Assembly: GCF_026210795.1 (NCBI RefSeq)
Contig: NC_089432.1
Location: 2,914,001-2,978,000 of the forward strand
Direction of reading: 5' to 3'
DNA: 64,000 nt
Source: Rhizophagus irregularis
Lineage: Eukaryota; Glomeromycota; Glomeromycetes; Glomerales; Glomeraceae
The notes under the pieces are model-generated. The model was not told the DNA's origin and did not search any database. It saw nothing but the letters and a program-made list of their open reading frames with translations. Made by a program: the position numbers and the translations under genes. How positions within the stretch are numbered: position 1 is the first letter of the stretch; each line of letters opens with the position of its first letter. Of the stretch, positions 5,625-60,522 are shown piece by piece.

Positions 5625-6434
5625 TAGAGGTTGGAACCGACCAAAAAAACCTTAACCGATTAATAATCGACTAATCAGTTACCATAACCGAATAATAATC
5701 GGTTAATTAATCGGTTAATTAATCGGTTAATTTGTGATGAGGTTAACCGATTAATTAATCGGTTAATATATAAATTTTGCACCCTATATGGATAATATAC
5801 ATGTATTATTTCAAAAAGTTATATCAAATTTTAATGGGAAACGAGAACTGACTTTAATTCAAGGTTTACTTAAATGGGAAATTAACAATATTAATGATAG
5901 TGGAATTGAATTGCAAGTTTTTAGGAATGTTTTTATTCCGCCGCCCATTTGAATATTTTGCGTAATATATATCACATGACATTTAGCTACGCCATAAATA
6001 ACTTAAAATAAAAACAAATACTTATAAAAGCATTTAAATATGTTACAAAAAAATATATAATAAATGACCAGATAGAGATTCATTTTCAATAGGTCTATAA
6101 TCAATATATTCTGAAAAAATGTCATTTGTTTCATTATTACCCATATTGTATAATTTTTTTTATAATAAATTAAAATTTCTCAAGTTTTTATAAAAAGTTT
6201 AAATGGGTTTATTTTTTTGACAAGTTTGTCAATACTGTATATTAAAAAAAACTTCTTATCGGAATTTCGGGATAAAAAATCATCATATTATTTTAACCGA
6301 CTAAATTAGTCGGTTAATTAATCGGTTAATTTAGTCGGTTAATTAGTCGATTAACCGATTTTTTGATACTTCTAACCGATTAACCGCCTTAACCGATTAA
6401 TTAATCGATTAACATTAATCGGTTCCAACCTCTA
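5625..6434. mobile_element. Non-autonomous hAT-type transposon
   Basis: The ends are inverted repeats TAGAGGTTGGAACCGA. Each end carries a cluster of TTAACCGATTAATTAATCGG subterminal motifs. The element is flanked by a perfect 8-bp duplication CTCTTTTC (5617..5624 and 6435..6442), the size expected for hAT elements. The interior (about 5780-6290) has only short frames, including a 33-codon minus-strand frame starting near 6153, and no recognisable transposase. Perfect duplications and well-matched ends suggest a fairly young insertion. Confidence 0.85.
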
Positions 6435-46565: not shown

Positions 46566-46830
46566 TTAAGGTTACACATTAATTTGGCCAGAATTAAGAT
46601 AATTTCGCCCAGCAAAATTTGGCCGGAATTATAAAACGGACATAAATGTCCGTTTGCAAATTTGGCAAGAATTATAAAAATGGACATAAATGTCCGTTTG
46701 CAAATTTGGCCAGAATTATAAAAACGGACATAAATTTGGCCGGAATTATAAAATAGATGGTTTTCTAATTTGGCCGGAATTATAAAAACGGACATTTATG
46801 TCCGTTTTTGTAAATTTGGCCAGCATTATG
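46566..46830. repeat. Tandem TTTGGCC(A/G)GAATTATAAAA units
   Basis: Seven or so copies of AATTTGGCC(A/G)GAATTATAA, several followed by the palindromic word ACGGACATAAATGTCCGT. Unit spacing varies (about 25-60 bp). The long minus-strand frame here is a by-product of the repeat. The final copy reads TTTGGCCAGCATTATGAATG, like 9088. Confidence 0.75.
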
Positions 46831-48074: not shown

Positions 48075-48270
48075 AATAGGCCTATACATGCCACCCAAAT
48101 TATTTTGGGCTGCCGTAATTATAAGTAAAATCCCAAATTCAATTATGACATCCCAAATTATTTTGGCACTTTACATAGTAAATTATATATAAATTGAATG
48201 AATTACGACATCCCAAATTATAATTATGGCATCCCAAAATAATTTGGGCAGCATGTATAAATAGGCCATT
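48075..48270. mobile_element. MITE with CCCAAATTATTTTGGG arms
   Basis: Inverted ends AATAGGCCTATACATGCC... and the complement of ...GCATGTATAAATAGGCCATT. Each arm contains a CCCAAATTATTTTGGG-like palindrome, and ATGACATCCCAAATTAT words repeat internally. Non-coding. Confidence 0.6.
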
Positions 48271-52000: not shown

Positions 52001-53720
52001 TTATTCGTCACAAGCAATAGACACAGCCCTTTTAAGTTCACCATTATATCCCTTAAGTGTCCATTTTGGTGCCTCAACGGGTTTTCGTTCGTCTGCTATA
52101 TGGTCACCATATGTTCGAACTCGTTTTACTTCTTTTGCATCCTTGTCCAGATAGTTTCGTAGAAACTTGCGAAGCTTATTTATAAAAAGAATTAGCACAC
52201 TTGGTCTAAAATATTACATATTTTAACAAATTCACTTACAGTGTCCGAACGCCAGGGAAGGTCTTTCACGATAATATTATTATCTTCATCCGACTCTTCT
52301 GGACTGTGATAACAATTTTGTTTGGTAATAGGTTCCAATTCAGTAAAATTAAATTGGTCCAGCAAGCGATCATTACTCTTTTTTAGGTTGTTTATCACTT
52401 TCGTCCTCTTTCGCCTTTTCTATATAGATTATATAAATATAACAAAATTAAATAAATTAAATCTGGCGGCATACTAATTTACCTCTGATCGACGTGTATT
52501 TCTATGTTTTCTTTTTAATTCTTTTTTTTTCCCTTCTTCATCCTTGTTGTTGATTCAGTATGTATTCCGTTGGCTACGATGTCTCCTCTTGATAATTTGA
52601 TATATAACATTCTCGCTTATCGGGTAAATATTAGGATCTAAGAGTTGTTTGATCGTTGGAATTATTCTTTCAATTACTATCTTCTTTTGAGATTCGAACG
52701 TTTTACTTCTGTCTAATTGGCTTTCATCCGGCATTCTGGTAATATTCCAGAAAACATCTCGCTAGATAATTTATTGCAATTAATAAATTAAAGTATAACA
52801 AAAATAAACAATAATAACTGTAGAATTTATTTACACGTAAAGCTTCTTTCAAATCCTTTTCCATTTCGTTCAAATTATTGTACCGCTTGAATCCAACGGA
52901 TTCAGCATTAATCAACGGTCTATTGGAATGTCGGCGACTTCCTTTTTCAATACTTTCTTCTTCAGTTTCAAAACTACTATTTTCTTCTGCCCTTTTTCGT
53001 TTACCCTCATCGGAATTCAGTTGTCGATTTTTTGATCTTTTTCGGCTTGTTATCATTATCATGTCTTCGCTATCAGAAATTCGCTGATTTTTTCTTGAGT
53101 CCTTTCGTTTAACTTTATTATCCGCATCTTCAACCCACCGATTTTTTCTTGAATCCTTTCGTCTAACTTTATTATCTGCATCTTCGTTATCGGAAATCTG
53201 ACAATTTTTTCTTGAATCCCCTTGTTTGACATCATCATCTACATCTTCGCTATCGGAAATCTGCTGATTTTTTCTGGAGTCCTTTCGTTTAACTTTATTA
53301 TTCGCATCTTCAACCCACCAATTTTTTCTTGAATCCTTTCGTCTAATTTTATTATCTGCATCTTCGTTATCAGAAATCTGACAATTTTTTCTTAAATCCC
53401 CTTGTTTGACATCATCATCTGAATCTTCGCTATCAGAAACCCGCTGACTTTTCCTTAACTTTTTTCTGTTTTTTCTGGTAATGTTACTGCTAGGTTCGGC
53501 ACCTTTCGAAGAACTAACTTTGGTACTTTCCAGGCCTATAATGTTGTATGTGACAGACTGATTTATAAAAATTTCTTGGATATGCATTACAAATTCATTA
53601 TGCACCTTTTTTACGCCTATACCTTTATATTTCTCTCTTAACGAATCTGATATTGAGTCATCAGAATCGGTATAAGGTATCACTGACGTATCTGACTCAA
53701 CTTTTTGCTGACTTGCCCTG
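52001..53720 (-). pseudogene. Second gene of the CMC element, decayed
   Basis: Divergent from the transposase. Minus-strand exon-like pieces run in order: from about 53720 to 52835 (acidic/basic disordered protein), then from about 52768, then about 52432..52240, then 52174..52001 ending YNGELKRAVSIACDE. Introns are GT-AG (for example GTAAGTG to ATAAATAAG at 52239..52175). The first part holds two copies of a 63-residue repeat built from SDSEDxDDDVKQGD, RKNCQISDNEDADNK and RRKDSRKN. Near 52530-52570 the frame breaks, so this copy is probably non-functional. CMC elements often carry such an accessory DNA-binding gene; that role is inferred. Confidence 0.55.
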
Positions 53721-54505
53721 TTTAAAAAAAGTTAATAATAAATAATTGTAAATAAGTAACTGGTAGTAAACTAGTACAGAAATCACTTACATATCTGTCC
53801 GTTTCTATTAATAAAAAATAAAATAAAATAAAATAAAATAAATAATAAAAGTCAGCCAATAAGTATATCGATTTCATCTTTAATGCTTGGAGTTCAATAT
53901 AACAATTTCATTATACTGAGCTCTGTGTGAACGTATAAGCCCAGGGGCTATAAAAGCCCACGGATGTGCGGATAAAAGCCCGGGTGCGCAAAAAAGACCC
54001 GGGCTTCCGAAAAGACAAAAGATAAAGCCCAGTTTCATACACAAAAAAATAAGGGCTTTGAAAGTAAAAGCCTAGACGCATAACAATACCTAAAAAATAA
54101 AATGGATAAATATTTGGTTGCATAATAAGCTAATACTTTGAAAGTAAAAGCCAAGATACTTGAAATTTCTGAACGGGTAAGTGGATAAAAGTTCGGTTAC
54201 ATAAAAAAGCCTGGGCAAAAGCCCGGTATGTAACAAACTAAAGAAGTTTGATTACATAATAAAGCCAAGGCTTTGAAAGTAAAAGCCCAGGCGCGTAATA
54301 ACTAAAAGTTTCCGAACAGCTCTAGACAGACTAACTGGTAATAATATACTTACAAAAGTTGTATAAAAGAACGCGAAGTATTAAACGCAAAATAGGGGTA
54401 AATTTATTTATCTATTTAATCGATAAAACCACGTGACACATTGCTGGTTTTCACAAAAATATTATCAGTACAACCCTGGATTTTTAAAAATAGTTTATCC
54501 ATAAA
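53721..54505. other. Divergent spacer with AAGCCCGGGCTTT words
   Basis: A (TAAAA)n run at about 53815-53840. Between 53930 and 54300 many imperfect copies of AAAAGCCCGGGC and GGCTTTGAAAGTAAAAGCC occur in both orientations, a degenerate repeat between the two transposon genes that could hold promoter or protein-binding sites. Confidence 0.5.
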
Positions 54506-56994
54506 ATGTCCACGAAAATTAGAAATAAATTACCATGTTACTGTAAAACATGCAATGGGAAAATAGTGGATGAAAGGACAAAAAAGAGTCATGAAGAATT
54601 AGAAACTCAATTAGCTTTTAATGTTTCCGGATTTGTTCCCTCGGCAAATATGAATATGCTCTTGTCTAATCCTGAACCTAACATGACTCCTAGCCAGCAA
54701 CTTATCGCAATGGAAATTGATGAACCTATTATAGAAGGATCATCAAGAAAAGAAATTGGATCGGAACAAGAATCGTCTGGTGATGATAATTATGAAGCTG
54801 ATTTTGAACACTATGCTAGACGAAGACAAGATCGATTTCAAGAACCGGATGCAAATCAGTGTGATGAAAATTCAAATGATGATGAAAGTACAAAATCAAT
54901 TGTAAGTAGTGAAAACGACAGAGATAGTGACGATGAAATTCAATTTACTGCCCCCGATTTTGACGATGATACAGAATTTAAATATTCCGATACTACTATC
55001 GATTATGCAGATTCATGGATTTTAATATGGATTTTTAAATACCAATCAAGATTTCGTTTGTCAGACGTGTCTATCGACGTCTTGATCAAATTTTTTCGCC
55101 AAGTACTGGAGGATGCCAACAGGACAAGATTTGCTGACTTTCCATCCTCTTTATATGTCGCAAAAAAACTATTTAAATTCAATAAATGCTCAAAAATTTT
55201 TACGGCATGTACAAATTGCCATACATTATACAATACTGCTGAAATTGGTGATACAGAATTTAAATGTAAACATGTAGAATTTCCAAATCACACATTGCGA
55301 ACAAAAAGGGAACCCTGTGGAACAGTATTAACTGAGAAAATACCAATCAATAAAGGGTATAAAAGACGTCCCAAAATGTTGTTTCCTCTACCGAATTTAA
55401 AAATGCAAATAATTACCTTATACCAGCGACCAGAATTTGAACAACAACTTAGAAAATGGACCGATCGGCATATAGATAATGAGTTAATAACAGACATTTA
55501 TGATGGAGAAATTTGGAAATCGTTTCCAAATGATCAGACATCCCCATTTTTTTCACCTGAAAAAGCTGATTCCCACCTTGGAATCATGCTCAATCTCGAT
55601 TGGTTCCAACCTTTTGATTCGGCTGTATATAGTTCTGGTGCAATATATGGAGTTATTTGTAACCTCCCACGAGACCTTCGATTTAAGAAGGAGAATATGT
55701 TAACTCTTGGTCTTCTACCTGGACCAGAAGAAGCCAAATTACATCAAATTAATAATTATTTAGCTCCAATAGTAAATGAATTGCTAGAATTTTGGAATGG
55801 AGTTGATTTGCCATCCACTTATAATTATCCTAGTGGTAGGAACGTTAGAATGGCTGTAATTTGTTGCAGTAGCGATGTTCCAGCTACTAGAAAATTAGGT
55901 GGTCATATATCAGCACTTGTAGGATGCCATAGGTGTTATAAGAAAGCGAACAATGAAGGCGGCCAAAAATTAAATTTTGGAGGGTTTGAAGATATGAAAG
56001 ATTGGTTCATAATGAGAGATGCAGAAGTACATCGACATAATGCTGTAATTTGGAAAAAACAGCAGTCAGAAGAAAGTAGAAACAAATTTGTTAAGAGGAC
56101 ACATGTCAGGTGGTCTGAAATGCTCCGATTGCCCTATTACAACCCGATTAGACATTTAGTTGTTGATCCAATGCATAATTTATTTTTGGGCATTGCAAAA
56201 TGGATCGTTAAAAAACTATGGATTGATAGTGGAAAAATTACTCAATCTGACCTTGAGGCAATGGAAAAAAAGGCAGAAAAAATTAAATTACCTGCAAATA
56301 TGGGTCGAATTCCAAATAAAATTGCAACCGGAAATGGATTCTCTGGATTTACAGCAGATCAGTGGAAAACTTTCATATTAATTTATGCTATTCCACTTCT
56401 ATGGAATTTGCTAAGTAAATCTGATCAGAAAATTTTAGGAAATTTTGTCAGAGCTTGTTCTTTACTGGTCTCTAGAATTATCAATAATGATATGCTGAAT
56501 GAAGCTCATGAATGTTTGCTTAAAGTTGCCATATTAATTGAAAAAGATTATGGACCGGGAATGATCTCTCCAAATATTCATCTAAGCCCACTAGTCGAAA
56601 AAGGACAATTCGGCCTAAATTTGACCAGGTCGAATATAGGTCGAATAATGGTCTAACCTGTGTCAAATTGAGGTCGAATTTTCGGGCGCATTTAGGGTGC
56701 CAATCGTCCCAAATTCGGACTAATTATTCGACCATTATTTAGGTTTAAATTGACCAATATTCGACCTTAAAACTTTAAGCCGAATTATGGTCTAATAACA
56801 ACCCATTTATTTATAAATTTATTTTGATTTTTTTTATCAAATTTATTAAATAAATGTATTTATTAATGCTTAAATACTTTATAATTATATTATTATTATT
56901 GCATCTATCTAATTTACAAAAAATATTGCTAATTCTAATACAATTCCACAATTACATGATTCATGTATTCGTATATACGAATCTTTGATTGTTC

Positions 56995-58850
56995 TTTAGC
57001 AATCCATCCGAACCTATAAAAAAAGAGAAGAACAGTTAGTAACCGTTCATAATAATAAAAAAAAATAAGAAAAAAAACCAAGATTCGTACTTACGAATCT
57101 TTGGTTTTTTCCGTTCTTCAGAAGATACCCGAGACACCTGAGACCTAAAAAGAAAAGAAAAGAACGGTTATTAGTAACCGTTCATAATAATATTAAAAAA
57201 AAAATCAAAAAAAATAAACTCTTTTCCCGAAGGTCGGAAGCCCACTCCACCCGATCCTAAAAAAAAGAAAGAACGGTTATTAGTAACCGTTCATTAATAT
57301 TAAAAAAAAAAAATTAAAAAAATTAAACCAAGATTCGTACTTACGAATCTTGGTTTTTTCACACAAAAGCCCGCCCGAACCTATAAAAAAAAGAAAGGAA
57401 CGGTTAGTAAACCGTTCCAAAATGATAAAAAAATAAAAATAAAAAAATATATAAAGATTCGTACTGTACTTACGAATCTTTATCTTTGGGTTTTCGTTCT
57501 TCGGAAGCCCACCCGAACCTAAAAAAAAAAGAAAGAATGGTTAGTAAACCATTCATAATAATCAAAAATAAAAAAGATTAAAGATTCGTACTTACGAATC
57601 TTTGGGTTTTCGTTCTTCGGAAGCCCACCCGAACCTATAAAAAAAAAAGAAAGAATGGTTAGTAAACCATTCGTAATAATCAAAAATAAAAAAGATTGAA
57701 GATTCGTACTTACGAATCTTTGGGTTTTCGTTCTCCGGAAGCCCACCCGATCCTAAAAAAAAGAAAAGAACGGTTATTAGTAACCGTTCATATATTAAAA
57801 AAAAAACAAAAAAATTAAACCAAGATTCGTACTTACTTACGAATCTTGGTTTCTTGGTTTTCCGTTCTTCGGAAGCCCACCCGATCCTAAAAAAAGAAAA
57901 GAACGGTTATTAGTAACCGTTCATATATTAAAAAAAAAACAAAAAAATTAAACCAAGATTCGTACTTACTTACGAATCTTGGTTTCTTGGTTTTCCGTTC
58001 TTCGGAAGCCCACCCGATCCTAAAAAAAGAAAAGAACGGTTATTAGTAACCGTTCATATATTAAAAAAAAAAACAAAAAAAATTAAACCAAGATTCGTAC
58101 TTACTTACGAATCTTGGTTTCTTGGTTTTCCGTTCTTCGGAAGCCCACCCGATCCTAAAAAATAAAAAAGAACGGTTATTAGTAACCGTTCATATATTAA
58201 AAAAAAAAACAAAAAAAATTAAACCAAGATTCGTACTTACTTACGAATCTTGGTTTCTTGGTTTTCCGTTCTTCGGAAGCCCACCCGATCCTAAAAAAAA
58301 GAAAAGAACGGTTATTAGTAACCGTTCATATATTAAAAAAAAAAACAAAAAAAATTAAACCAAGATTCGTACTTACTTACGAATCTTGATTTCTTGGTTT
58401 TCCGTTCTTCGGAAGCCCACCCGATCCTAAAAAATAAAAAAGAACGGTTATTAGTAACCGTTCATATATTAAAAAAAAATCAAAAAAAATAAACCAAGAT
58501 TCGTACTTACGAATCTTGGTTTCTTGGTTTTCCGTTCTTCGGAAGCCCATCCGATCCTAAAAAATAGAAAAGAACGGTTATTAGTAACCGTTCATAATAT
58601 TTTTTTAAAAAAATAAAAAAAAAATCCAAGATTCTTACGAATCTTTGGAATTTTCCCGTTCTTCGGAACACGGAAGCCCACCCGAACGGCCGAATCTAAA
58701 AAAAAAAGTAATAAAAGAACGGTTAGTAACCGTTCATACTAAATTAAAAAAATAAATAAATAAACCAAGTTTCGTACTTACGAAACTTGGTTTTTCCATA
58801 CTTCGGAAGCCCACCCGAGCCTTTTAAATGGGCGTCTTGAATCTAAAAAA
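56995..58850 (-). repeat. Array of about 15 intron-like units with hairpins
   Basis: Period about 117-138 bp; the central units (57740-58500) are almost identical. On the minus strand a unit runs: TTTTTTTAG acceptor, exon-like piece of 39 or about 46 nt (GATCGGGTGGGCTTCCGAAG..., CCAAGATTC), donor GTAAGTAAG, A/T-rich spacer, GGTTACTAATAACC branch-like site and CTTTTCTTTTTTTAG. Intron-like length is about 75-90 nt. The donor lies in a hairpin with arms CCAAGATTCGTA/TACGAATCTTGG, the branch site in one with arms AACGGTTA/TAACCGTT. Long frames here only reflect the repeats. Confidence 0.85.
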
Positions 58851-58919
58851 GAAAAAAACGAAAATGTTAGTGAAACGTTTCGTTAAAAAAAGTAAAAATT
58901 CGAAGGTATATGTATACCT

Positions 58920-59121
58920 TCGAAAGAGATAAGTGACGAAAGGAAAGGGAAAAGGGTAAGGAAGGGAAAAGCGAAGGAAGGGAAAGGAGAACGAAGGGAG
59001 GGAAAGGGAAAGAAGAAAAACTGGGACGAAAGAAAAGGGGAACGAAGGAAGGGAAATGGCGAGGAGGGAAGGAAGAAAATTAAAAAAGTTTAAAAAAGGA
59101 TCATCCTTTTTTAAACTTTTA
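58920..59121. repeat. GGAAGG-rich tract and adjacent palindrome
   Basis: 58920-59075 is almost pure purine on the plus strand (GGAAGGGAAA words). It is followed by a perfect palindrome (59084..59121) with arms AAAAGTTTAAAAAAGGAT. On the array strand this is a CT-rich tract just upstream of the first unit, a position typical of fungal pyrimidine-rich promoter sequence. Promoter activity is inferred only. Confidence 0.55.
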
Positions 59122-60522
59122 TTTTAATACGCGTATCGCGTAATGCGTAACGTTTGATTAACATAATTCAACTAGGTTGAATATATGTCTAATCGTAGAT
59201 CTTTACTAATTGAAGTCGAATTTTATTAATTCTAGTCGAATATAGGCCAAATTGTATTAAGGCCGAATATTCCTTTTTCAACTAGTGGCCTTCATCTTGC
59301 AGAATGCTGTAAAGATTATGGCCCACTATATTCCTTTTGGTGCTATTCATTTGAAAGGATGAATGGAATTTTAGGTATTTTTTCCAAATAATGAGATTAT
59401 AGAGGTGTGATCTGCTTAGCGTTATCCAGTCAAAGTCACGTGATATGTCTGTTAATTTCCTTTTTGGGATTAAATGTTATACAAATTTCCAAAAGGAGGC
59501 GTTTCCATTTTTAGATTTTTTTTTTTTGAACGAATATCACCCAAAAAAAAAAATGATCAGCATACTCGTGTATAACCGGATCAGATAATTGGCTCATCGG
59601 CTGATCAGATCGAATTTCATTTAGATTTATTTGACTTATATTATTACTATCTTTAGGTTCCTTTCCGAATAGCCGTCGTCAAATTGAGCCGGAATTACTA
59701 CGAATTATTATGCAGAATTGGAGAATCGATAATCTTATATCCTTTCGATCAGATGATGTTAAACTTTCTGAAGGATTAAAATTATTAAGATCCCAGAGCA
59801 CTACTGGCACTCTTGCCGCTTACGATGAGCTAGATTTTGGTGAACTACTTCAATTTAGACAAATTTTTTGTCAAGAAATTGATGATACAATTAATGGTAG
59901 TGAGCCATTTCCTGGAGAAATGCTTAAACCAAGTAAAAATCGGGTTGCTTTGCCTAATGATGTTTATAAAATATTAACCGACTACTATAATAGTGCTTAT
60001 GATCACCAATTTTTAACAATTGCCGAGTCAACATCAACCAATTCAGGTGGCTCTATTGTTGTACCAAACATAGTTAATCAGTTTGCCCGTGTTAGAATTG
60101 CAGCAGAAATTTTTGGATCAGCAATGTCACCTCGGTACTTGAAAAATGCATATATTTTGGCGAAATTCGTCCAAGAAAACCAAGGAAATGAAACAACCGA
60201 TTTATATCCTGGTCAGGTGCAATATTATTTTGAGCATACAATCAGAATATCAGGTGAACCTACGACTCATCGGTTGGCATTTATCAGATGGTACGAACCA
60301 GCACCAAACCGGCATATACGATTTTATACAAGTATCGATGAAAATGAAAACAGCTCAAATATTGAACTCTGGCAAAATAATTTTTATGATTTACGCCGGG
60401 ATTGCTTAATCCCAATTCATTACATATATAGCCGATTTGTATCTTGTAATTTTGTAGTTGGTAAAAAGAAATTTGTTTCATATCAAGCTGTAATACCAAT
60501 CAATAGGCAATTTCACATATAA

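What the first reader, a model, noticed from the sequence alone, without database searches (positions are those of the whole stretch)
56995..58850. Tandem array whose units carry donor and branch sites in covarying hairpins
About 15 units read on the minus strand as complete introns (GTAAGT, TACTAAT, T-tract, AG) separated by 39-46-nt exon-like pieces. The donor and the branch site each lie in a hairpin, and arm changes are paired between units. The donor stem is CCAAGATTC/GAATCTTGG in most units but CCAAGTTTC/GAAACTTGG near 58765. The branch stem is AACGG/CCGTT in most but AATGG/CCATT near 57537 and 57656. This suggests that structure is kept and that the array is a spliced or splice-regulated RNA, or a transposon signal that imitates introns. 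I know of no described element with this design. Palindrome-based gene conversion is the main alternative.
Basis: partly seen in the sequence, partly recalled or inferred. Interest (0 to 1): 0.86.

Follow-up and report, generated by a model that had tools for sequence, protein, structure and literature searches.

The report
Jumping gene carrying a palindromic intron array
The repeat array is the inside of a small jumping gene that landed in another jumping gene's transposase; it carries fourteen near-copies of one intron-bearing unit whose splice signals sit in DNA palindromes, which may be kept by DNA copying as much as by a need for folded RNA.

Summary
On the minus strand lie 14 units plus an upstream intron and a degenerate terminal unit, with GTAAGT, TACTAA and T-tract-AG in order. 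Of 14 donors, 13 sit in perfect palindromes (arms 10 bp or more), and of 14 branch sites 11 (9 bp or more). Some arm changes are paired.

It is a CACTA-like non-autonomous transposon carrying a gene-like, tandemly amplified exon-intron cassette.

Coding is not supported. Splicing is likely but untested. Covariation rests on few events: the donor stem beats most shuffles, the branch stem does not. Three of five two-sided pairs are double transversions; the branch A is exposed in 9 units and buried in 5; one 18-bp-arm palindrome is not at an intron. I favour palindromes made and mended at DNA level (template switching), with selection on splice signals, over a conserved regulatory RNA fold, which is not excluded.

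The parts
56589..59287 (.). CACTA-like non-autonomous element, 2,699 bp, that contains the whole array
   Evidence: TIRs, target duplication and empty site; no open frame of 120 aa or more within it
56589..56615 (+). left terminal inverted repeat
   Evidence: 27 bp, 24 equal to the other end
59261..59287 (-). right terminal inverted repeat
56586..56588 (.). target-site duplication GCC, left
59288..59290 (.). target-site duplication GCC, right
54494..56588 (+). left part of the interrupted tnp2-type transposase gene
   Evidence: PF02992, 6e-14, in the translated piece 54497-56585
59288..60522 (+). right part of the interrupted gene; the frame runs on as LHLAECCKDYGPLYSFW and resumes after a likely ordinary intron
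   Evidence: no Pfam match to 59635-60522
58918..59080 (-). pyrimidine-rich leader upstream of the first donor (possible promoter or first exon)
   Evidence: sequence; role inferred
59084..59120 (.). perfect palindrome, 18-bp arms, not at an intron
58843..58917 (-). intron 0; donor GTATAC in a 12-bp-arm palindrome (58899-58924), CACTAAC in a hairpin
   Evidence: its use is inferred
57014..58842 (-). array of 14 exon-intron units u01-u14
58762..58793 (-). donor hairpin of u01, variant arms CCAAGTTTC/GAAACTTGG
57841..58426 (-). u04-u08 exons and introns: young block with doubled donor GTAAGTAAGT
57519..57752 (-). u09 and u10, branch stem AATGG/CCATT
57145..57256 (-). u13, donor and both arms of its hairpin lost
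56935..57013 (-). terminal exon-like piece with degenerate donor palindrome and a stop
56806..56864 (-). four AATAAA motifs downstream of the terminal piece

Best explanation
It is the interior of a non-autonomous CACTA-like DNA transposon that jumped into the open frame of a tnp2-type transposase gene (shown by sequence). The element carries, on its minus strand, a gene-like unit: pyrimidine-rich leader, intron 0, an exon-intron cassette present as 14 tandem copies, and a terminal piece with a stop and AATAAA motifs (anatomy shown; transcription inferred). By their signals the introns are ordinary spliceosomal introns and are probably spliced, perhaps with skipping, because the donor G is predicted to be paired in 13 of 14 introns (inferred). 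Splice signals are kept; exon frame is not visibly kept, so a protein is doubtful. The palindromes around donor and branch are most likely made and re-perfected at DNA level: short self-complementary cores, above all GTA-AG-TAC at the donor, let a strand fold or switch template so that one arm is copied onto the other, and duplication of units spreads the result (inferred). This gives paired arm changes without selection for an RNA fold.
For: Transposon: two 27-bp TIRs, 24 matches, no other copy in the window; GCC/GCC and an empty site that reads on in one open frame; tnp2 domain in the left part of the gene; AT[TA]CG[AG]C motifs at 17 and 8 per kb at the two ends against 0.25 in window 1-56588, like the subterminal repeats described for CACTA elements (PMC8978399, passages read). 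Splicing: 13 strand-specific complete motifs; among 8 diverged units the donor hexamer is 96% and the branch hexamer 100% identical, exon bodies 61% and spacers 66% with gaps counted (the units were delimited by these motifs, which inflates the first two). DNA-level palindromes: 3 of 5 two-sided pairs are double transversions and only 2 of 242 cells are G-U; the branch A is unpaired in 9 and paired in 5 of 14 units, so its place in the fold is not kept; an 18-bp-arm palindrome outside any intron; u13 lost the donor hairpin as a block; template switching is published as a source of compensatory changes (PMC8794818, abstract and passages).
Against: No RNA was available, so neither transcription nor splicing is shown. 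GTA-NN-TAC cores elsewhere in the window do not extend (19 sites, at most 1 bp; TTA-N-TAA 139 sites, at most 4 bp), so palindrome growth is not general and needs a special reason in this element. In most units the branch palindrome is not centred on TTA-C-TAA, so the seeding idea fits the donor better than the branch. The two one-sided changes that keep pairing are G-U, as RNA selection predicts. Intron 0 has unlike arms but the same layout (homology with the array introns neither shown nor excluded), which looks like a kept feature. One copy of the element was seen, so changes cannot be polarised.
Confidence: 0.55

Rival explanations
1. Selected RNA structure: each donor and branch hairpin gates splicing of its unit (slow, optional or alternative-donor splicing), and the stems are kept by compensatory mutation.
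For: Donor-stem covariation reached by 83 (raw) or 8 (bulge-corrected) of 5000 shuffles; folds better than shuffles in 5 of 5 units tested; donor G paired in 13 of 14 introns; intron 0 has the same layout with unlike arms; in five units the first GT is in the stem and the second GT in the loop.
Against: Few events; three of five two-sided pairs would need a mismatched intermediate; branch stem not significant; branch A not held in one place; shuffles ignore relatedness; no Rfam match in the window.
Confidence: 0.25
2. A protein-coding repeat gene (13-16 residue repeats such as FGWASEERKPKDS) captured by the transposon, with exon-intron units duplicated to lengthen the protein.
For: Exons 44-54% GC in a 20-24% GC intron background; from the ATG at 58799 the fully spliced model is open for 155 codons; four of the five diverged units u09-u12 and u14, and also u02, have exons: 57, 39, 39, 45 and 36 nt are multiples of three.
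Against: Openness is reached by 120 or 175 of 1000 shuffles and the low stop count by 73 of 1000; the six 46-nt exons and the 50-nt exon break the frame; exon bodies and spacers are equally alike without gaps, 0.87 and 0.89; the 155-codon frame ends inside u11.
Confidence: 0.12
3. The palindromes are binding sites or cis signals of the transposition machinery and the splice signals are left from a captured fragment.
For: Palindromes are far denser inside the element than outside; CACTA elements have repeated cis sites near their ends (PMC8978399).
Against: The array is central, while a different motif (AT[TA]CG[AG]C) crowds the ends; 24 of 25 palindromes sit exactly on donor or branch.
Confidence: 0.08

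Closest known systems
Gene-fragment-carrying CACTA elements, e.g. Tgm-Express1 of soybean (PMC1947982, abstract read)
   Same: CACTA element carrying exon-intron pieces whose splice sites are used by the spliceosome
   Different: There five unrelated captured gene fragments; here one cassette in tandem, palindromic splice sites, no known source gene and no RNA evidence
CACTA/CMC/Plavaka elements of Rhizophagus irregularis (PMC11075540 and PMC8647823, passages read)
   Same: Superfamily with tnp2-type transposase (recalled), reported as prevalent and expressed in that fungus
   Different: The passages read mention no intron array; that the window comes from such a fungus is inferred, not shown
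Internally symmetrical stwintrons and fungal introner-like elements (PMC8469720, passages read)
   Same: Introns with inverted-repeat symmetry in fungi
   Different: There the repeats span the intron ends and copies are dispersed without target duplications; here two local palindromes per intron, one with an arm in the exon, copies in tandem
Introners (PMC9860276, one passage read)
   Same: Transposon-related intron signals, TIRs and target duplications
   Different: No single introns seen inserted in genes of this window; the TIRs lie far from the splice sites
RNA hairpins made and maintained by template switching (PMC8794818, abstract and passages read)
   Same: Paired stem changes and whole stems from DNA copying
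   Different: Described for RNA genes, not for splice-site palindromes in a transposon

Membership tests
CACTA (EnSpm/CMC) DNA transposon | Inverted termini starting with CACTA/G | tested here: met
   CACTAGT at both ends, 24 of 27 TIR positions equal
CACTA (EnSpm/CMC) DNA transposon | 3-bp target-site duplication | tested here: met
   GCC/GCC; the empty site keeps one frame open
CACTA (EnSpm/CMC) DNA transposon | Subterminal direct and inverted short repeats | tested here: met
   AT[TA]CG[AG]C: 7 at the left end on both strands, 3 at the right end on one strand
CACTA (EnSpm/CMC) DNA transposon | Own tnp2-type transposase (autonomous members only) | tested here: not met
   No frame of 120 aa or more in the element, hence non-autonomous; the tnp2 gene around it is the target
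CACTA (EnSpm/CMC) DNA transposon | Several copies in the genome | not testable with these tools
   Own genome not held; no match in the prokaryote and viral collections
Introner | The same intron at new positions in many genes | tested here: inconclusive
   None in the other 61.3 kb (best E 0.19); genome not available
Internally symmetrical stwintron | Inverted repeat made of the intron's two ends | tested here: not met
   In the five folded units the intron ends do not pair with each other; two local hairpins instead
Gene-capturing CACTA element | Source gene elsewhere in the genome | not testable with these tools
   Own genome not held
Conserved structured RNA | Covariation beyond phylogeny and mutation bias | tested here: inconclusive
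   Donor stem 83 or 8 of 5000 shuffles, branch 1701 of 5000, relatedness not modelled

The most novel reading that the evidence does not exclude
A transposon that carries a serial array of self-folding introns: each donor and branch is a hairpin switch, so that the element's transcript is spliced slowly or in many combinations, which serves the element (for instance in evading silencing or in making variable RNAs), with the stems kept by selection across unlike arm sequences.
Probability: 0.22. Interest if true: 0.78.

Novelty: new variant of a known kind. Interest (0 to 1): 0.52.

Why it matters
Compensatory changes are widely taken as proof of a functional RNA stem. Here such changes occur in tandem copies inside a transposon, around signals whose core (GTA-AG-TAC) is self-complementary. 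The array is thus a natural test of whether DNA template switching alone can write covariation around splice sites. If the stems are instead functional, it is a transposon with a serial, structure-gated intron array. I found neither described in my paper searches (an open-access library only, listings and some passages read).

Tried and rejected
SP7-like repeat effectors of arbuscular mycorrhizal fungi: considered because of repeats and introns. The passages read describe a signal peptide and 6-11 imperfect hydrophilic protein repeats and mention no intron per repeat; the exons here do not keep a frame. I did not test for a signal peptide. Set aside. AGL surface-protein genes (passages): one or two introns; set aside.

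Coding by exon frame: tested against shuffles, not supported.

The element as an intron of its host gene: rejected, since the array's splice signals are on the strand opposite to the host gene and the element's ends on the host strand are CACTAG...CTAGTG.

Palindrome growth at self-complementary cores as a general habit: not seen in the rest of the window. This is a result against my own reading.

Ends of the host transposon: a 16-bp CAC/GTG pairing over 46.0-54.5 and 60.6-64.0 kb gave three pairs of 12 matches, none convincing. Ordinary introns as a control: only a few could be placed by motif in the kinase genes, so the GTAAGW sites serve instead; not all of those are introns. Relatives: patterns in GTDB and IMG/VR and the transposase in IMG/VR gave nothing; those collections are not fungal. 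Alignment A1 misplaces parts of the branch stem, so arms were paired by hand and the count of structure pairs was not used.

Full report
WHAT IS THERE. Read on the minus strand, the interval holds 14 units (u01-u14, 58842 down to 57014). In 13 of 14, an exon-like piece of 36-61 nt is followed by an intron of 77-93 nt with GTAAGT (GTAAGA in u02), TACTAA, a T-tract and AG. Upstream lies a further intron (58917-58843, 75 nt, GTATAC and CACTAAC); downstream a terminal piece with a degenerate copy of the donor palindrome. u13 lacks the donor and both its arms. Complete intron motifs number 13 on the minus strand of the element and none on its plus strand; elsewhere in the window there are none on plus and 2 on minus; 198 of 200 shuffles have none. 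Exons are 44-54% GC, introns 20-24%.

CONTEXT. The array is the interior of a transposon. At 56589 and 59287 two 27-bp inverted repeats face each other (CACTAGTCGAAAAAGGACAATTCGGCC and CACTAGTTGAAAAAGGAATATTCGGCC). GCC stands on both sides, and the joined short flanks give one open frame...GPGMISPNIHLS-LHLAECCKDYGPLYSFW.... The left part of the interrupted gene has the tnp2 transposase domain (PF02992, 6e-14). AT[TA]CG[AG]C motifs crowd both ends. Likeness to Plavaka-type transposases is recalled; Pfam named only tnp2. The source is probably an arbuscular mycorrhizal fungus (one Sel1 and one kinase frame confirmed by Pfam; more such frames; 23-34% GC); this association is recalled and untested. 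In R. irregularis, Plavaka and CMC-EnSpm elements are reported as prevalent and expressed (PMC11075540 and PMC8647823, passages read).

HAIRPINS. A scan for perfect palindromes found 25 in the element and 14 in the other 61.3 kb. Of the 25, 13 are at donors (12 in the array, one at intron 0), 11 at branch sites and one (59084-59120, 18-bp arms) at no intron. u09 and u10 have 8-bp branch arms and u14 a wobble, below the threshold; u02's donor stem has a bulge. Donor hairpins fold at -9 to -21 kcal/mol in the 10 units computed, and 5 of 5 units folded whole beat their shuffles (z -3.2 to -6.8; one shuffle of 200 folds as well in one of them). In a local fold of the model pre-mRNA the donor G is paired in 13 of 14 introns; the last A of TACTAA is free in 9 and paired in 5 of 14 units (that this A is the branch base is recalled from yeast). 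GTAAGW sites elsewhere reach at most a 7-bp arm (67 sites).

PAIRED CHANGES. Donor stem, 13 units, 10 pairs: two-sided changes at pair 4 (u01, A-T/T-A), pair 8 (u10, u11, C-G/A-T), pair 9 (u11, C-G/T-A), and pair 10 (u02, A-T/T-A, only with a bulged A set aside). One G-U (u04). Unpaired cells: 9 of 130 raw; 5 of 130 corrected, all in u09 and u10. Branch stem, 14 units, 8 pairs: one two-sided pair (u09, u10), one G-U (u14), none unpaired. Shuffles reaching the score: 83 of 5000 raw, 8 of 5000 corrected, branch 1701 of 5000. The shuffles ignore relatedness; identical rows were counted once, leaving 8, 7 and 3 rows.

READING. The paired changes are real but few, and two processes can give them. 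Selection for an RNA stem predicts G-U steps and a constant position of the functional bases. Copying of one DNA arm onto the other predicts one-step changes of any kind. Three of five two-sided pairs are double transversions; the branch A moves between stem and loop; a palindrome without splice signals sits in the same element; one hairpin was lost as a block. I therefore favour DNA-level making and mending of palindromes, seeded at the donor by the self-complementary GTA-AG-TAC. Against this, such cores do not grow elsewhere in the window, the branch palindrome is differently centred in different units, the one-sided paired changes are G-U, and intron 0 shares the layout with unlike arms. 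The template-switch route is published for RNA genes (PMC8794818, abstract and passages read).

FUNCTION. The anatomy (pyrimidine-rich leader, introns, terminal piece, four AATAAA motifs) is that of a transcribed gene on the minus strand; transcription is inferred. A protein is not supported: openness from the first ATG is reached by 120 (random isoforms) or 175 (full inclusion) of 1000 shuffles, and the low stop count by 73 of 1000. For a protein speak five exons in multiples of three (57, 39, 39, 45, 36 nt); against it the six of 46 nt and the one of 50 nt. Exon bodies and spacers are equally alike (0.87 and 0.89 without gaps). Most likely the element carries an intron-bearing fragment, possibly captured as in Tgm-Express1 (PMC1947982, abstract read), multiplied by tandem duplication, with working splice signals. 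What the transcript does for the element is open.

COMPARISON. It meets the tested structural features of CACTA elements and is non-autonomous. It is not shown to be an introner and is not a symmetrical stwintron. The combination of CACTA element, tandem introns and palindromic splice sites was not found in ten paper searches, of which I read the listings and the named passages or abstracts.

Noticed in passing
54494-60522 (+): tnp2-type transposase gene interrupted in its open frame by the array-bearing element; the right part seems to hold an ordinary intron of roughly 270 nt (by eye).
   Followed up: partly
57840-58380 (-): Five units (u04-u08) carry a doubled donor GTAAGTAAGT; the fold puts the first GT in the stem and the second in the loop, a possible donor 4 nt downstream.
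   Followed up: partly
52724-53731 (-): 335-aa open frame with a tandem repeat (DSRKNQQISDSEDVDD-like; periods 63 and 180), beside the transposase; no Pfam match.
   Followed up: no
48083-48259: Inverted repeat with 42-nt arms, 90% complementary, 93 nt apart; looks like a small MITE.
   Followed up: no
46615-46809: 44-bp tandem repeats with palindromes (AAACGGACAT) outside the element.
   Followed up: no
5696-6358: Short TTAACCGATTAA-like palindromic repeats, among the 14 palindromes outside the element.
   Followed up: no
1-45000: Series of Sel1-like repeat and protein-kinase frames with 108-nt repeat units (one of each confirmed by Pfam).
   Followed up: partly
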